Shown: positions 3,209 through 15,322 of the stretch, piece by piece | How the letters are laid out: every line of letters begins with the position of its first letter | How positions within the stretch are numbered: the first letter of the stretch is position 1 | From: JALSIF01 sp026981635 [NCBI: bacterium] | GTDB lineage: Bacteria; 4484-113; JALSIF01 | Assembly: GCA_026981635.1 (NCBI GenBank) | Contig: JALSIF010000157.1 | Span: forward strand, 1 to 18,274 | Length of the DNA stretch: 18,274 nt | Reading direction: 5' to 3' | Program-made: the position numbers and the translations under genes | The notes under the pieces: generated by a model | What the model saw: only the letters and a program-made list of their open reading frames with translations | Told to the model about the DNA's origin: nothing | Databases searched by the model: none

Positions 3209-3303
3209 GACTGATAGAATCGCCTGCCATAGCTTATCCAACAGAACAGCCAGGACCCAGCTCAGAAACAAGGGAGGAGGGCAAAGCTGTCAAGCGGTAG
3301 GAG
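3209..3303 (+). other. fabG-fabF gap lacking acpP, with an unused Shine-Dalgarno-like site
   Basis: This 95-bp gap holds no plausible gene. AGGGAGGAGGG (3271-3281) is a strong ribosome-binding-like sequence, but no ATG, GTG or TTG follows at normal spacing; the next start is the fabF ATG 22 nt later. A second, weaker GGAG (3300-3303) abuts that ATG directly. The acpP gene often found here in other bacteria is missing, and no DSL phosphopantetheine motif can be read in the gap. Confidence 0.6.
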
Positions 3304-4599: not shown

Positions 4600-5454
4600 T
4601 CACCTCTCCTGACCCCTGAGCTCTTCCACCAGGGCGGGAAGCACCTTAGCCGCTGAGCCCCGCAGGGAGTAGTGGGCGTGGGGGGTGAGGGCGGTGGCGG
4701 CTGGGTTTACCTCCACCATCCTGCCTCCCCGGGCGGCGGAGATCTGGGGATAGAGGGCGGCGGGATAAACCTCGGCCGAAGTTCCCACCACCAGCATGAG
4801 ATCGGCCCGCTGGGAAAGCTCGTAGGCCTCCCGCTCGGCATCCTGGGGTAGGAGCTCGCCGAACCAGACCACGTGGGGGCGAAGGAGAAGGGACCCCTTC
4901 TCCCGGTCGCTAAGTCTGGCCAGCTCAGGGGGCAGGACGTCCCCCCGGCCCATCTCCTTCCATCGCTTCTCCACCTGGGAGAGGTGGGGGGGAAGGTCGC
5001 CCAGGGGAGGAGGGGGAAGCTCCACCAGTAGATGGCGGGCGTCGGGGGGAGAACCCACCGGCCGGGCAAAGTGGATGTTGCCGTGCAGTTCCACCACCCG
5101 CTGGCTCCCTGCCCGCTGGTGGAGACCGTCAATGTTTTGGGTGATGAGGGCAAACTCCCCTCCCCTCGCCTGAACCAGCCCCTCAAGCTCGGCCAGGGCC
5201 AGGTGGCCGGGGTTGGGGCTCACCTGGCGGATCTGCTCGCGGCGCCACTCGTACCACTGCCAGACAAAGGCGGGGTCGCGCTCAAACCCCTGGGGGGTGG
5301 CCAGATCCTCCAGGGAGTACTGGGACCAGAAACCGTCCGGCTCGCGGAAGGTGGGAATGCCACTCTCCTTGCTCACCCCCGCTCCGGTAAGCACCACCAC
5401 CACACCCGCCTGGGCCAGCAGGCGGGCCACCTGGGCAACCTCTTCCTCCACCAT
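4600..5454 (-). CDS. Sir2-family NAD-dependent protein deacylase lacking the zinc cysteines
   Basis: Sirtuins remove acyl groups from lysine using NAD+. The 284-residue protein has the NAD-binding GAGVSKESGIPTFR (24-37), TQNIDGLH (105-112), catalytic His124 in ELHG, RPHVVWFGE (192-200), VVGTSAEVYPA (222-232), and EVNP (248-251). Tyr68 and Arg71 in WYEWRR match the YxxR signature of class III sirtuins, which favour succinyl/malonyl-lysine. The oddity is a total absence of cysteine. After His124 the sequence reads NIHFARP where relatives have a Cys, and a Pro-rich segment of about 65 residues replaces the tetracysteine module. No clear Shine-Dalgarno precedes the ATG at 5454. It converges with fabF (15 bp apart). 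Family assignment is firm; enzyme activity is inferred. Confidence 0.93.
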   Translation of the reverse strand: MVEEEVAQVARLLAQAGVVVVLTGAGVSKESGIPTFREPDGFWSQYSLEDLATPQGFERDPAFVWQWYEWRREQIRQVSPNPGHLALAELEGLVQARGGEFALITQNIDGLHQRAGSQRVVELHGNIHFARPVGSPPDARHLLVELPPPPLGDLPPHLSQVEKRWKEMGRGDVLPPELARLSDREKGSLLLRPHVVWFGELLPQDAEREAYELSQRADLMLVVGTSAEVYPAALYPQISAARGGRMVEVNPAATALTPHAHYSLRGSAAKVLPALVEELRGQER

Positions 5455-5574: not shown

Positions 5575-6996
5575 GTGGGCAGGCGTGGATATCTGTTGAC
5601 AACGTGGCTCTTTTTGGCCCTGGTGGGGGTCCTGGTGCTTGCTGGGGAGCACTCCCCGGCTGAGGTTTCCACTGGCCCCCCGCCCAGCCTTTCATCCACG
5701 GGCAGTGGGGACCGCCTTCCCCCCTTCCCGCCGCTCGGCCTTGACCGCCGCCTTTCCGCCATCAGTCCGCTGGTGCAGGTGATCTATGGGGACGAAGCGG
5801 TGATGGAGAGAAACGCCAGCGAGGTGGCCAGCCACCACCTGCTTTTAAGTGGCGGGGTGGCGGAGATCGGCTGGGCCATCTACCGCATCGGCGGGCTGGC
5901 CTACGGGGGATACCCCCAGGCCATCTCCCTAGAGCTGGGGGGAGCCACCCAGCCCTGGGCGGAGGTGGACCTGGCGGTGGGGGACTTCACCCACCAGCGC
6001 TGGGCCTTCTACGGGCCGCTAAACCCGGAGGAGCTTTCCAGCGGGCAGGTGGCCCTGGACCAGTTCAGCCTTACCCCGGAGGATGTGGTCTCGCCCAACG
6101 GCAACGCCTTCCTGCTGGTGGTAGCCCGGCCGGGGGCGGCGGTGGAGATTGCCCGGGTGAGGGTGGAGCTGAAGGAGGTGCCGGCCAGGATCGGCACCTA
6201 CAACATTGAGTGGCTGGAGCGGCCGGGGATGCGCGGAGGCTATGAGCGCAGTGAAGAGGACTTCTATGAGCTTGCCCGCATAATCGCCTCTGACTACGGC
6301 TTTGACTTGGTGGGGATCGCCGAGGTGGTGGACCAGGAGAGCCTCAACCGGCTACTCACCTACCTTCCCGGATATGATGCGGTCTTCATCGCTTCGGGCA
6401 GGGAGAGCCAGCACCTGGCCCTCATCTACCGCACCGGCCGGGTGGAGATTCTCAACGCCTACGAGGAGGACGCCATCCGCATCGGCAACCCCTTCCTGAG
6501 GCCGGGGCTGGTGGTGGAGGCGCGCATCGGCAACTTTGACTTCAAGCTGATGATGGTTCACCTCAAGGCCCTCTTTGACAGCTCCTCCAAGGCCAAGCGG
6601 CTCCAGCAGGCCCAGGAGATCAACAGCTGGCTGGACCAGCAGTTTGCCGACCCCAGCGGGGAGCGGGACTTTATTGTCTTGGGGGACATGAACGACTTTC
6701 TCGGCTCCCCTCCCCTGGAGGAGATCCGGCTGGAGGGCAGGGCGGAGCGGATGCACTTCCTCACCGAGGAGCTGGAGCCGGGGGACTACTCAACCCCGGA
6801 GTATGAGTCCACCGTGGACCACATCGCAGTGAGCGCCGACTACACCTACTCGCCGCCGGGCGGACCGGAGCGGGAGTATATCTCCGGGTCGGTGGACATC
6901 CTTCCCCTGGTGGATATCTATCCCAACTACATCCTGCGCCTCTCCGACCACCAGCCGGTGGTGGCGGCATTCAGGGTTGCGGTGGATGATGATTAA
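5575..6996 (+). CDS. Secreted endonuclease/exonuclease/phosphatase-fold protein
   Basis: The protein has 473 residues. Residues 1-25 look like an uncleaved anchor or signal peptide (RR followed by LLTTWLFLALVGVLVLAG). Residues about 60-203 form a beta-rich region I do not recognise. Residues about 205-468 are an EEP (DNase I/exonuclease III/inositol phosphatase superfamily) domain. Its motifs are TYNIEWL (Asn210), AEV (Glu250), MVHLKA (His329), LGDMND (Asp371, Asn373), STVDHIAVS (His416), and SDHQPV (Asp458, His459). All catalytic positions seem intact, so Mg2+-dependent phosphodiesterase or nuclease activity outside the cytoplasm is likely. The substrate is unknown. The GTG start at 5575 has only a weak TAGAGTAGG upstream. 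It converges with the AT-rich nuclease gene, 13 bp away. Confidence 0.85.
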   Translation: MGRRGYLLTTWLFLALVGVLVLAGEHSPAEVSTGPPPSLSSTGSGDRLPPFPPLGLDRRLSAISPLVQVIYGDEAVMERNASEVASHHLLLSGGVAEIGWAIYRIGGLAYGGYPQAISLELGGATQPWAEVDLAVGDFTHQRWAFYGPLNPEELSSGQVALDQFSLTPEDVVSPNGNAFLLVVARPGAAVEIARVRVELKEVPARIGTYNIEWLERPGMRGGYERSEEDFYELARIIASDYGFDLVGIAEVVDQESLNRLLTYLPGYDAVFIASGRESQHLALIYRTGRVEILNAYEEDAIRIGNPFLRPGLVVEARIGNFDFKLMMVHLKALFDSSSKAKRLQQAQEINSWLDQQFADPSGERDFIVLGDMNDFLGSPPLEEIRLEGRAERMHFLTEELEPGDYSTPEYESTVDHIAVSADYTYSPPGGPEREYISGSVDILPLVDIYPNYILRLSDHQPVVAAFRVAVDDD

Positions 6997-7009: not shown

Positions 7010-8065
7010 CTAATCGGTATAAATAACTAAGTCTCTTTTCTTATATCCAAACTGCTCTATCATTCTTCTACAAATATTTTCTATCATAATAGCAGAGAAA
7101 TGAGTTTCTACATACAATCTTGGCGCAATTTTCTCAGGACTTCTTAGGTCAACCTCTGAATTACTAAAATATAGTCTCTTGGTTCCTCTTATTGATTTGG
7201 TGAGCGCAAGAAACTTGGCCTGATCTTCATTATAAAGAATCTTTGATAACAATACTAATAATTCTTTCCAAGTTTTCACCTCGTATTTTTTCCCTTTAAA
7301 AGCAAAGGCCTTTATTTTCTTATATGTCCTAGAAGTAGTCGAATGTAAGCTTAGTATTTCATCGTCATCAATTCTTGTTCCAATAGTGTCCACTTCTCGT
7401 ATAAGTTGCCTTAGATGCTCGGATATTGTTCTCAAATCTAAATCAATGCTATAATTATTCTTAATATAATCTTGGAGAAGATCAGATATTATTTCGTCAG
7501 AGTTCACAAGTTCTAGAAAAGCTCTAGGAATGACCTCTTTGGCCTCCCTCTCTTTTCTCTTTTTTTCAAATTCATCCCTTGCCTTCTGTACGGCTCTCCC
7601 ATCTATTACAGCTTTTCTTTCAATAAAGTCTTTTAAATTACTTACAATAGTGTCCAAATTATCAATCGTCATATTAAACGTACATACAACTCTATTCCTC
7701 CAGCTTTCCTCAACTACTGGAAGGTATATTTTCCAAACAAAGCCATCAGTCAGCACTGCTAGACTAGACCCGACTTTGAAAGCATACTTCAAAAGTTGCT
7801 CTTCTGAGACATCAATTGATCCAAGTTTGGGAGACTTAACCTCAATAAGAACTTTAGGGTTACCCTTTACCAAGAGAGCATAGTCTACTCTATCTCCGTT
7901 CATAGGATACTCTGGATTCACTTCATCAAAATTAAGAGTATCCCATCCCAAAGCTCTCAAAATTGGAACTACTATTATTTGTTTAATTGCTTCCTCATTG
8001 AGCCTATTTCTATTGTCTAACTCTTTTATTCTTTGAATCTCAGCTCTCAAATTTCCAGAACCCAT
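7010..8065 (-). CDS. Standalone HsdR N-terminal-type (predicted type IV) restriction nuclease
   Basis: From the ATG at 8065 the protein has 351 residues. The N-terminal ~150 residues resemble the nuclease domain of type I restriction subunit R: NEEAIKQIIVVPILRALGWD, then Asp61 in RVDYALL, and Glu75-x-Lys77 in IEVKSP, a PD-(D/E)xK core. A charged, probably helical segment follows (about 155-180). The C-terminal part (GTKRLYFS, RLYVETHFSA) is shared with standalone proteins of this type. There is no helicase and no HsdM or HsdS nearby. The gene is strikingly AT-rich (19 GC of 60 in bases 7201-7260), unlike all neighbours, which suggests horizontal acquisition. A TTG at 8110 would add 15 residues, but AGGGAGAG lies 7 nt before the ATG at 8065. 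A defence role is inferred. Confidence 0.82.
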   Translation of the reverse strand: MGSGNLRAEIQRIKELDNRNRLNEEAIKQIIVVPILRALGWDTLNFDEVNPEYPMNGDRVDYALLVKGNPKVLIEVKSPKLGSIDVSEEQLLKYAFKVGSSLAVLTDGFVWKIYLPVVEESWRNRVVCTFNMTIDNLDTIVSNLKDFIERKAVIDGRAVQKARDEFEKKRKEREAKEVIPRAFLELVNSDEIISDLLQDYIKNNYSIDLDLRTISEHLRQLIREVDTIGTRIDDDEILSLHSTTSRTYKKIKAFAFKGKKYEVKTWKELLVLLSKILYNEDQAKFLALTKSIRGTKRLYFSNSEVDLRSPEKIAPRLYVETHFSAIMIENICRRMIEQFGYKKRDLVIYTD

Positions 8066-8069
8066 TAGC

Positions 8070-8453
8070 CTACTCTCCCTGCGACTTTCTGATTTCGCTA
8101 CTGTGGTCAACTCTATCCATCCCCCCGGCGGGCCTGAGCCTCACCGCTGTCCCGTAGCAGACGAACTCGGTGTAGCCACCCTCACCGCTGGAGCTGTCGT
8201 AGCGTACCATGATTACTGCATCCGCCCCCCGCAGGCGGGCGTCTTCCAGCATCCGCTCCATCGCCTCGGAACGGGCCTTCTCGCACATCTCCGAGTAGGG
8301 GGTGACTTCGCCGCCGAGCATCATCTGGAACCTCGCCCACATATCATAAAACATGCCCCGGGTCCTTACCGTCACCCCGCGGACGATGCCCAGTACCTGT
8401 TCAATCTCATAGCCGGGGACCTCAAAGGATGTGGTAACTATGATGTGGTTCAC
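8070..8453 (-). CDS. YbjQ/UPF0145 family protein
   Basis: The 127-residue protein matches the YbjQ/UPF0145 family. It has an opening VTTSFEVPGYEIEQVLGIVRG, a central KARSEAMERMLEDARLRGADAVI helix-strand unit, and a closing GTAVRLRP strand. The family is often called a putative heavy-metal-binding domain and forms pentameric rings in solved relatives; its function is not established. The GTG start overlaps the stop of the upstream patatin-like gene (GTGA, 8450-8453), so the two are translationally coupled. The last ~15 residues after RPAGG are polar, lack family resemblance, and are encoded by DNA grading into the AT-rich segment. This tail may have been altered when the downstream nuclease gene arrived. 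Confidence 0.85.
   Translation of the reverse strand: MNHIIVTTSFEVPGYEIEQVLGIVRGVTVRTRGMFYDMWARFQMMLGGEVTPYSEMCEKARSEAMERMLEDARLRGADAVIMVRYDSSSGEGGYTEFVCYGTAVRLRPAGGMDRVDHSSEIRKSQGE
8073..8080 (-). promoter_or_regulatory. Ribosome binding site of the HsdR_N-type gene
   Basis: On the - strand this reads AGGGAGAG, 7 nt before the ATG at 8065 and inside the end of the upstream YbjQ-like gene. It is the reason for choosing ATG 8065 over the TTG at 8110. Confidence 0.7.
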
Positions 8454-13470: not shown

Positions 13471-14447
13471 ACCTGAGCAAGTTCAGCCAGTGGTTTGAGC
13501 GGATTGACTGGTTCCTGATCGGGGAGCGGGTGCTGTTTATTGCGGTGCTCATCGTGGTCACCTGGCTGATTGACCTGGTGCTCACCAGGGCCATAAACCA
13601 CCTCTTTGAGAGCCTCTCCCAGCGGCTGGGGGAGAAGAAGATCAGCCCCAGGCTCAAAACCCTGGGGCAGCTTCTAAACGGGATTGAGACCTTTGGTCTT
13701 TGGGTGCTGGCGGCGCTTATCGCCCTAGACAGCATGAATGTAAACATCGCCCCAATACTTGCGGCGGCGGGGATCACCGGCCTTGCCCTGGGGTTTGGCG
13801 CCCAGCGGCTGATCCAGGACCTCATCTCGGGCTTCTTCATCCTGCTTGAGGATCAGTTTCGGGTGGGGGATGTGATCACCTGCGGGGGCAAGACGGGGAC
13901 GGTTGAGGCGGTAAACATCCGCCTGACCAGGCTGAGGGACTTTGAGGGCAAGGTCCACTTCATCCCCCACAGCGAGTCGGGGATCATCACCAACCACACC
14001 CACGGCTTTGCCCATGCGGTGATTGAGTTTGGGGTGGACTACCGGGAGGACCTCAGCCGGGTCACCGAGGTGATCCGCATCGTGCTGGAGGACCTAAAAA
14101 ACGACCCCGATCTGGGGCCAGACATCCTGGAGACGGAGTTCTTCGGGGTGAGTGCTCTGGCCGACTCGGCGGTGGTCTTCCTCATCCGCATCACCACCAA
14201 GGAGAAGCGCCAGTGGCAGATCAAGCGCGAGGCGCTGGCCAGGCTCAAGGTGGCCTGCGACGTGGCGGGAATAAACATCCCCTTCCCCCACCGCCAGATC
14301 ATTACCGAGAAGCCCCCGGCGGCAGAGGGCGCCATTGACCGGGAGGAGTTCATGCGCCGCTACCGACGGGAGATTGACGAGATGCGCGATATCGCCAAGG
14401 AGGAGCTGATGCAGGTGGTGAAGGAGGGACCGGGTCAGGGCGACTAA
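13467..14447 (+). CDS. MscS-family mechanosensitive ion channel
   Basis: The 326-residue protein has three predicted membrane helices (about 18-40, 66-88, 93-127). The third is the pore helix with the classic Gly/Ala-rich pattern, AAAGITGLALGFGAQRLIQDL, followed by SGFFILLEDQFRVGDVI (121-137). A beta domain follows (GKTGTVEAVN, then FEGKVHFIPHSE), and an alpha/beta C-terminal vestibule with a long charged helix at about 290-326. Such channels open under membrane tension to release osmolytes during hypo-osmotic shock. It is compact, close to E. coli MscS in design. It is the second gene of a coupled pair, and its TAA overlaps the stop of the convergent methyltransferase. Confidence 0.95.
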   Translation: MNLSKFSQWFERIDWFLIGERVLFIAVLIVVTWLIDLVLTRAINHLFESLSQRLGEKKISPRLKTLGQLLNGIETFGLWVLAALIALDSMNVNIAPILAAAGITGLALGFGAQRLIQDLISGFFILLEDQFRVGDVITCGGKTGTVEAVNIRLTRLRDFEGKVHFIPHSESGIITNHTHGFAHAVIEFGVDYREDLSRVTEVIRIVLEDLKNDPDLGPDILETEFFGVSALADSAVVFLIRITTKEKRQWQIKREALARLKVACDVAGINIPFPHRQIITEKPPAAEGAIDREEFMRRYRREIDEMRDIAKEELMQVVKEGPGQGD

Positions 14448-15322
14448 CCACCACTCTGCCTCAACCGGCCGCTGCGCTTTCGTCTGGCTTCCCTGAGGCG
14501 CTGTTCGGCCGCCTCGGCGTAGCGGGGATCCCGCTCAATGAGGATGAACTTCCGGTTCAGTTCAACGGCCGCCACCCCGGTGGTCCCCACCCCGGCCATG
14601 GGATCAAGTACCAGCGCCCCCTCCTGGCTGGTGGTGAGCAGGACCCGGCGGAGAAGCTCCAGGGGCTTCTGGGTAGGGTGGAGGCGGCGGCCTGCCTCAT
14701 CTCGCAGGCGCTCCTTACCGCCGCAGGTGGGGATCTCCCACAGGTTGGATCCGGCCCTGCCCAGACCGAACTGCTTGGCAAAGTTTCGGTTGAAGTAGTA
14801 GCCCTCCGGGTTTTTCTCACTCCTGGGCTTGACCTTCCTCCCCAGGGAGGCCCAAAGCAGGGTCTCGGTGGCGTTGGTAAAGCGAACCCCGAGCCAGTTG
14901 GGCATCGGGTTGGTCTTTATCCAGATGACGTCGTTCAGGATCCAAAAGTCCAGGTCCTGGAGAAGGCGGCCGATGCGGTAGATGCTGTGGTAAGTCCCGA
15001 TCACCCAGAGTGTGGCCTGGGGCTTCATTACCCGGCGAAGCTCCCCGAGCAGTCGCTCCATGAAGCGGTCGTAGCTGGCAAAGTCGTCAAACTGGTCCCA
15101 GGGGACAAAGACTCCCTCCACCCGAGATCGGTCGCCCCAGCGACGCAACTTATTACGGCGGCGGCGGGGCAAGCGGAGGGCATATGGTGGGTCAAGAAAG
15201 ACCAGGTCGGCGATCCCCTCGGGAAGAAGAGGAAGCACCTCCAGGGCATCGCCCAAGATGAGGCGGTTGGTCACGTAGCGGGGGCTGTAGGGCCTGGTGC
15301 GGCGTGGGTTTAGGCGAAGCAT
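14444..15322 (-). CDS. Orphan site-specific DNA methyltransferase, beta class
   Basis: This is a 292-residue SAM-dependent DNA amino-methyltransferase. The catalytic motif IV DPPY (44-47) comes first, and the SAM-binding motif I DPMAGVGTT (240-248) is near the C terminus, with HPTQKP (215-220) between them. This order defines the beta class (M.MboIIA/CcrM-like, mostly N6-adenine, some N4-cytosine). Unlike CcrM, it lacks a C-terminal extension. A basic LPRRRRNK loop follows motif IV. No restriction gene lies beside it, so it is an orphan, with epigenetic or protective roles possible. The ATG at 15322 is 3 nt after the ABC ATPase stop, with the GGTGAGGG just before it. Target sequence cannot be read from the protein. 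Confidence 0.92.
   Translation of the reverse strand: MLRLNPRRTRPYSPRYVTNRLILGDALEVLPLLPEGIADLVFLDPPYALRLPRRRRNKLRRWGDRSRVEGVFVPWDQFDDFASYDRFMERLLGELRRVMKPQATLWVIGTYHSIYRIGRLLQDLDFWILNDVIWIKTNPMPNWLGVRFTNATETLLWASLGRKVKPRSEKNPEGYYFNRNFAKQFGLGRAGSNLWEIPTCGGKERLRDEAGRRLHPTQKPLELLRRVLLTTSQEGALVLDPMAGVGTTGVAAVELNRKFILIERDPRYAEAAEQRLREARRKRSGRLRQSGG

What the first reader, a model, noticed from the sequence alone, without database searches (positions are those of the whole stretch)
4600..5454. Sirtuin with intact NAD/catalytic motifs but no cysteine at all
Canonical sirtuins hold a structural zinc with four cysteines between the catalytic-His motif and the RP..VWFGE motif. This protein has no Cys anywhere. 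The expected first Cys position reads Pro (FARP), and about 65 Pro/charge-rich residues replace the module (residues ~127-190). Catalytic residues are kept, so it may be a zinc-independent subgroup with a different lid.
Basis: partly seen in the sequence, partly recalled or inferred. Interest (0 to 1): 0.6.

Follow-up and report, generated by a model that had tools for sequence, protein, structure and literature searches.

The report
Zinc-free sirtuin with enlarged lid
This bacterial gene encodes an otherwise normal sirtuin (an NAD-using enzyme that removes acyl tags from proteins) that lacks the four cysteines sirtuins usually use to hold a structural zinc; related bacteria show the same loss, so it looks like a real natural variant, although zinc-free sirtuins as such have been noted before.

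Summary
Window 4600-5454, minus strand, encodes a 284-aa sirtuin (Pfam SIR2, E 3.7e-43) with NAD and catalytic motifs, no cysteine, and a 61-residue stretch in place of the zinc module (median 30 over 108 aligned sirtuins). Having no Cys is not remarkable in itself (5 of 18 neighbouring proteins have none); missing the zinc tetrad is. A sequencing error is unlikely: 8 of 11 sirtuins in the 10 genomes held of this class lack the tetrad, among them the genome's second sirtuin; three, from one sister family, keep it. Three zinc-free pairs show dN/dS of 0.13-0.33. AlphaFold2 folds the protein confidently (mean pLDDT 96.5; 92-96 in the replaced module) and the model fits Sir2Af1 over 245 residues at 1.6 A. 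A YxxR pair suggests a SIRT5/CobB-like deacylase. Zinc-free sirtuins are not new as a kind: a Bacteroidota/Halomonadaceae-type clade lacks the tetrad, and papers note it in Vibrio phages and acetic acid bacteria. New here are a separate loss in this class and, in the window protein alone, a 27-residue partly helical insertion at the zinc knuckle. Activity and zinc were not measured.

The parts
4600..5454 (-). sirtuin gene, 284 aa, no cysteine
   Evidence: ORF; Pfam SIR2 3.7e-43; NCBIfam NF001753 255.6 bits against cut-off 243; AlphaFold2 model matching Sir2Af1 at Z 32.7
4885..5061 (-). zinc-free replacement of the zinc module (residues 132-190), between AR and LRPHVVWFGE
   Evidence: alignment with 107 other sirtuins; pLDDT 92-96 in the ten-residue blocks 131-190
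4900..4980 (-). 27-residue insertion (residues 159-185) found in this protein alone among 108; predicted helices 158-167, 176-179 and 183-188 in and at its edge; possibly a partial duplication of the preceding segment
   Evidence: not seen in 14 inspected modules of other genomes whose matches were best or reached into it
5080..5088 (-). LHG with the catalytic His124
   Evidence: residues 123-125; H124 invariant in 48 sequences
5242..5253 (-). YEWR, Tyr68-x-x-Arg71, the SIRT5/CobB-type acyl-pocket pair (meaning of the motif recalled)
   Evidence: residues 68-71; R71 in 90% or more of 48 sequences

Best explanation
The gene encodes an active NAD-dependent lysine deacylase of the Sir2 family (PRK00481 group, SIRT5/CobB-like) whose small-domain module keeps the sirtuin shape without metal. 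Shown by computation: NAD, catalytic and substrate-loop motifs present; no tetrad; a confident predicted fold close to zinc sirtuins; purifying selection on relatives that also lack the tetrad. Inferred: the knuckles that zinc normally ties are held by turns and packing (PPRD-x-x-G in relatives where zinc sirtuins have PP-x-C-x-x-C; a proline-rich segment plus the partly helical insertion in this protein), so the substrate can still bridge the FGE loop and the Rossmann fold and acyl groups are removed without zinc. Such an enzyme should keep working under chelation, zinc shortage or thiol oxidation, conditions expected to harm zinc sirtuins (expectation recalled, not tested).
For: Family. Motifs present. 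Same loss in 8 of 11 sirtuins of the class; in 7 of 10 genomes no tetrad-bearing sirtuin was found. Purifying selection in zinc-free pairs: dN/dS 0.195/1.32 (L020/L021), 0.22/1.64 (L002/L006), 0.422/1.26 (L010/L011); their modules 0.193/1.22, 0.252/1.32, 0.444/2.01; the zinc-keeping pair L005/L008 0.085/0.67, module 0.055/0.64. AlphaFold2 mean pLDDT 96.5, pTM 0.92, high through the module; Sir2Af1 over 245 residues at 1.6 A, Z 32.7; SIRT5 at Z up to 31.0. A zinc-free sirtuin of another clade (L109) also folds confidently (mean pLDDT 94.9, blocks 111-140 at 89-95). [quoted passage not shown]
Against: No activity or metal measurement. The same passage of PMC8556138 says zinc is important for the integrity of the domain; passages in PMC12700824 and PMC3484402 say zinc or its module is needed for deacetylation in canonical sirtuins and for structure and activity of PfSir2A. 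AlphaFold2 models carry no metal and can be confident for a protein that is not stable without one; no zinc sirtuin was folded as a control. The paralogue L031 has diverged (HNWR for YEWR; WFDE for WFGE and GTSGETVLA for GTSAEVYPA; branch length 1.7). The dN/dS pairs are other proteins: the window protein has no close relative to test, synonymous differences are large (pS 0.61-0.67), L010/L011 is less constrained (0.33), and in L020/L021 and L002/L006 the module ratio is somewhat above that of the whole gene.
Confidence: 0.72

Rival explanations
1. The module still binds a metal, through His/Asp/Glu ligands (His128, His141 and His157 lie in or next to it).
For: The window module listing contains three His.
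Against: The paralogue L031 and L010, L011, L020 and L006 have no His in the module (5 of 8 zinc-free modules), so no such site is shared by the group; the three His stand 13 and 16 residues apart, unlike the C-x-x-C pairs. Distances in the model could not be measured.
Confidence: 0.1
2. The protein no longer deacylates lysine; it acts as an NAD glycohydrolase, an ADP-ribosyltransferase or an NAD sensor, as proposed for SIR2_2/FAM118/ThsA proteins that have no zinc module.
For: In PMC12700824 (passages) lack of the zinc module goes with NAD processing rather than deacetylation.
Against: Pfam finds SIR2 and no SIR2_2 at E up to 0.001; PADLOC finds no family; the FGE loop and YxxR pair are kept; the model matches acyl-peptide-bound Sir2Tm, CobB and SIRT5.
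Confidence: 0.13
3. Assembly or sequencing artefact, or a decaying gene.
For: Draft assembly (317 contigs, 85% complete); the insertion is seen in one genome only.
Against: Intact frame with codon composition like the rest of the gene; the loss recurs in the second sirtuin of the genome and in 6 of 9 sister genomes; purifying selection in zinc-free relatives.
Confidence: 0.05

Closest known systems
Sir2Af1 of Archaeoglobus fulgidus (PDB 1ici, 1m2g, 4twi; organism recalled)
   Same: best sequence match in the PDB (4twi 9.8e-63) and best fold match (1m2g Z 32.7, 1.6 A over 245 residues; Foldseek TM 0.80/0.90, rmsd 2.7)
   Different: ordinary module with zinc cysteines (three visible in the alignment, role recalled) against 61 residues without Cys
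CobB of Escherichia coli and SIRT5 (class III sirtuins; class recalled)
   Same: YxxR pair and core motifs; Z about 27-31
   Different: four module Cys in the CobB relative L074; the window protein is below the NCBIfam CobB equivalog cut-off (252.7 against 320)
Zinc-free CobB-like sirtuins of Bacteroidota, Halomonadaceae and others (L076, L081, L087, L107, L109, L127 and kin)
   Same: tetrad lost, LRPHVVWFGE kept; L109 folds confidently
   Different: separate clade (16 rows, 100/99) grouped with zinc-bearing CobBs (97/93), with another replacement (such as RSS... and GDLC..G.QLRPH) and ordinary module length
Sirtuins of Vibrio phages phiGrn1/phiSt2 and KVP40 (PMC5107563, passages)
   Same: reported from modelling to lack the zinc ligand, with salt bridges proposed instead
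   Different: phage proteins, 23.5% identical to the E. coli enzyme; not compared directly here
SIR2-domain sirtuins of some acetic acid bacteria (PMC11820453, passages)
   Same: predicted there to lack a zinc site in some genera
   Different: in that paper all PRK00481-type sirtuins, the group to which the window protein belongs, were marked as zinc-binding
FAM118 / ThsA / SIR2_2 proteins (PMC12700824, passages)
   Same: sirtuin fold without zinc
   Different: lack the module altogether; here it is present and enlarged, and Pfam calls SIR2

Membership tests
Sir2 family (Pfam PF02146) | profile score over the gathering cut-off | tested here: met
   148 bits against 24
Sir2 family (Pfam PF02146) | GAGxS, QNxD, catalytic His in LHG, GTS and VNP motifs (recalled list) | tested here: met
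Sir2 family (Pfam PF02146) | Rossmann large domain plus small domain | tested here: met
   predicted model, 245 residues on 1m2g at 1.6 A, Z 32.7
Canonical zinc-binding sirtuins | four Cys holding a structural zinc | tested here: not met
   0 Cys; Pro132 and Leu158 at the first and third positions
NAD-dependent protein deacylase subfamily (NCBIfam NF001753, PRK00481.1-3) | curated score cut-off 243 | tested here: met
   255.6, in two stretches
CobB equivalog (NCBIfam NF040867) | curated score cut-off 320 | tested here: not met
   252.7
Class III (SIRT5/CobB-like) deacylases | Tyr-x-x-Arg acyl-pocket pair | tested here: met
   Y68-E-W-R71; meaning of the pair recalled
Class III (SIRT5/CobB-like) deacylases | NAD-dependent desuccinylation or deacetylation | not testable with these tools
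   needs an enzyme assay
SIR2_2 / FAM118 / ThsA | SIR2_2 profile rather than SIR2 | tested here: not met
   only SIR2, plus a sub-cut-off TPP_enzyme_M hit, at E up to 0.001

The most novel reading that the evidence does not exclude
Part of a small bacterial class runs its lysine deacylation on metal-free sirtuins only, and in this species the zinc knuckle has been replaced by a newly acquired, partly helical lid, perhaps built by duplication of an adjacent segment. That would give a deacylase insensitive to zinc limitation and thiol oxidation, and a natural experiment on what the sirtuin zinc is for.
Probability: 0.35. Interest if true: 0.6.

Novelty: new variant of a known kind. Interest (0 to 1): 0.4.

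Why it matters
Papers treat the sirtuin zinc or its module as required for deacetylation (passages). A small bacterial class in which sister families keep or lack the tetrad on the same flanking scaffold gives close natural pairs to ask what zinc contributes: stability, substrate choice, or a redox switch. The window protein adds a metal-free module with a new partly helical piece, a good target for a crystal structure.

Tried and rejected
Chance absence of Cys: plausible for total Cys (P about 0.215), not for the tetrad.

Assembly error: judged unlikely.

Conserved gene neighbourhood as a clue to substrates: ORFs were listed for eight class loci, and Pfam was run on the neighbours of L031 only (MutS domain, SCFA transporter, class II aldolase, RNase PH). 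In the window the gene runs tail to tail with fabF and divergently from 5575-6996. No clue to substrates came of it.

Defence role: no PADLOC family.

Most listed matches start after the insertion; some start inside it. Inspected from that search: six best-match modules (L135-L140, L135 being the gene of L010; L141 printed none) and eight whose matches start inside it (L142-L149). None of the 14 has a similar insertion, and L136-L140 and L142-L149 have module Cys. Listed matches from G238 and G366:C78, starting at the insertion's last residue, were not inspected, nor were unlisted ones.

Internal duplication as its origin: local alignment score 35, reached by 3 of 2000 shuffles, but the segments were chosen by eye; DNA repeats in 4850-5100 do not pair the two segments, though a 24-nt direct repeat (71%) lies at 4988-5035 just before the insertion. 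Suggestive only.

One loss or several in the class: in the module-free tree the zinc-keeping family f4 groups with zinc-free f2 (99/91), which implies several losses or a regain; holding the 8 zinc-free rows as one clade is not rejected (p-AU 0.097). The 11 class rows are one side of a branch at 77/89 only.

Papers: ten searches over open-licence full text; no assay of a zinc-free CobB-like bacterial sirtuin was seen in the listings and passages, which does not show that none exists. Six papers were seen as passages; others as listings only.

Full report
What is there. The frame lies on the minus strand of 4600-5454 and gives 284 residues without a cysteine. It is a Sir2-family protein: Pfam SIR2 at 3.7e-43 and NCBIfam NAD-dependent protein deacylase subfamily over its cut-off, 255.6 against 243. 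GAGVS, TQNIDGLH, LHG (His124), LRPHVVWFGE, GTSAEVYP and VEVNP are present, and they hold most of the columns that never vary among 48 aligned sirtuins. Having no cysteine at all is not rare here: cysteine is 30 of 5558 residues in 18 neighbouring proteins and 5 of those 18 have none. What is unusual is that four conserved positions are empty.

The module. Aligned with 107 other sirtuins, the position of the first zinc cysteine is Pro132 and that of the third is Leu158; the fourth lies beside a 27-residue insertion, residues 159-185. The stretch measures 61 residues, the longest of 108, against a median of 30; the next longest is 57, in L004, which keeps four Cys and has its extra length elsewhere in the module. 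Rows dropped before that count: short frames (L019, the shorter frame of L071, L093), L120 (no frame found) and duplicates of the same genes; loci from L128 on were fetched later or are duplicates. L019, cut by a contig end and outside the class, also shows no Cys in its visible part. The sample was drawn by similarity to the window protein and does not estimate frequency in nature.

The relatives. The class is represented by 10 genomes, with 11 Sir2 proteins. Eight of the 11 lack the tetrad: the window protein, the second sirtuin of the same genome (L031, 0 Cys in 264 aa), four in family f2 (L010, L011, L020, L021) and two in family f3 (L002, L006); the six of f2 and f3 have one or two module Cys at other places. 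Three in family f4 (L003, L005, L008) keep it. The zinc-free ones keep the flanking scaffold: PL-P-E-x-PP-x-C-P-x-C...LRPH in f4 becomes, for example, PL-V-E-I-PP-R-D-E-R-G...LRPH in L011. In 7 of 10 genomes the only sirtuins found are zinc-free, with the caveat that the ten assemblies are 77-96% complete.

Elsewhere. Among 108 aligned sirtuins, 27 have two or fewer cysteines in the module, 8 have three, 66 have four and 7 have five. Sixteen rows of the tree form a well-supported clade (100/99) of Bacteroidota, Halomonadaceae and others with a different replacement; one of them, L095, has three cysteines. That clade joins zinc-bearing CobBs on a supported branch (97/93), so its loss is separate from that in the window's class. 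With module columns left out of the tree, the states 'three or more' and 'two or fewer' need six changes over 81 rows (27 of the 108 rows were left out, mostly near-redundant ones). Whether the class lost the tetrad once or several times is open: f4 sits with f2 in the tree (99/91), but one zinc-free clade is not rejected (p-AU 0.097). The bootstrap had not fully settled.

Selection. Nei-Gojobori estimates for zinc-free pairs give dN/dS 0.195/1.32 (L020/L021), 0.22/1.64 (L002/L006) and 0.422/1.26 (L010/L011), ratios about 0.15, 0.13 and 0.33; modules alone 0.16, 0.19 and 0.22. The zinc-keeping pair L005/L008 gives 0.085/0.67, 0.13, module 0.09. So zinc-free proteins are kept by selection, with large synonymous divergence as a caveat. 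The window protein itself has no close relative.

Structure. AlphaFold2 with 48 sequences gives mean pLDDT 96.5 and pTM 0.92; the ten-residue blocks from 131 to 190 score 92 to 96, with helices at 158-167, 176-179 and 183-188. Foldseek ranks Sir2Af1 first, and VIA-align places the model on Sir2Af1 (Z 32.7, 1.6 A, 245 residues), then SIRT5, Sir2Af2, Sir2Tm and CobB. L109, a zinc-free sirtuin of the other clade, also folds confidently (94.9; 89-95 in blocks 111-140).

Mechanism. I propose a metal-free NAD-dependent deacylase. [quoted passage not shown] the substrate loop FGE and the class III pair Y68/R71 are kept (meaning of the pair recalled), and the fold is predicted to hold. Against this stand statements that the zinc module is needed for deacetylation in canonical sirtuins (PMC12700824 passage) and zinc for structure and activity of PfSir2A (PMC3484402 passage).

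What is known. Zinc-free sirtuins have been noted: Vibrio phage sirtuins modelled without a zinc ligand (PMC5107563 passages), some acetic acid bacteria (PMC11820453 passages; there all PRK00481-type sirtuins were marked zinc-binding), and the module-free FAM118/ThsA group (PMC12700824 passages). The window protein is therefore a new variant of a known kind; the insertion, not seen in 14 further inspected modules, and the pattern across the class are what is new, as far as the ten searches of open-licence papers show.

Noticed in passing
G000:C59 (L031:801-1592): A second sirtuin in the same genome, also with no cysteine and no zinc tetrad, HNWR in place of YEWR; beside a MutS-domain gene and a short-chain fatty acid transporter.
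   Followed up: partly
3209-3303: Only 95 bp separate fabG and fabF, so the acyl carrier protein gene often found between them (order recalled) is absent; a PP-binding protein is encoded on another contig, G000:C74.
   Followed up: yes
7010-8110 (-): ORF with HSDR_N and a SeqA-C-like match in a stretch of about 35% GC in a contig otherwise about 60-69% GC: foreign-looking.
   Followed up: no
14444-15322 (-): N4/N6 DNA methyltransferase; no restriction enzyme was identified beside it, but its direct neighbours were not scanned.
   Followed up: no
5575-6996 (+): 473-aa protein with no Pfam family at E up to 0.001, weak similarity to ExeM/NucH endonucleases, no cysteine.
   Followed up: no
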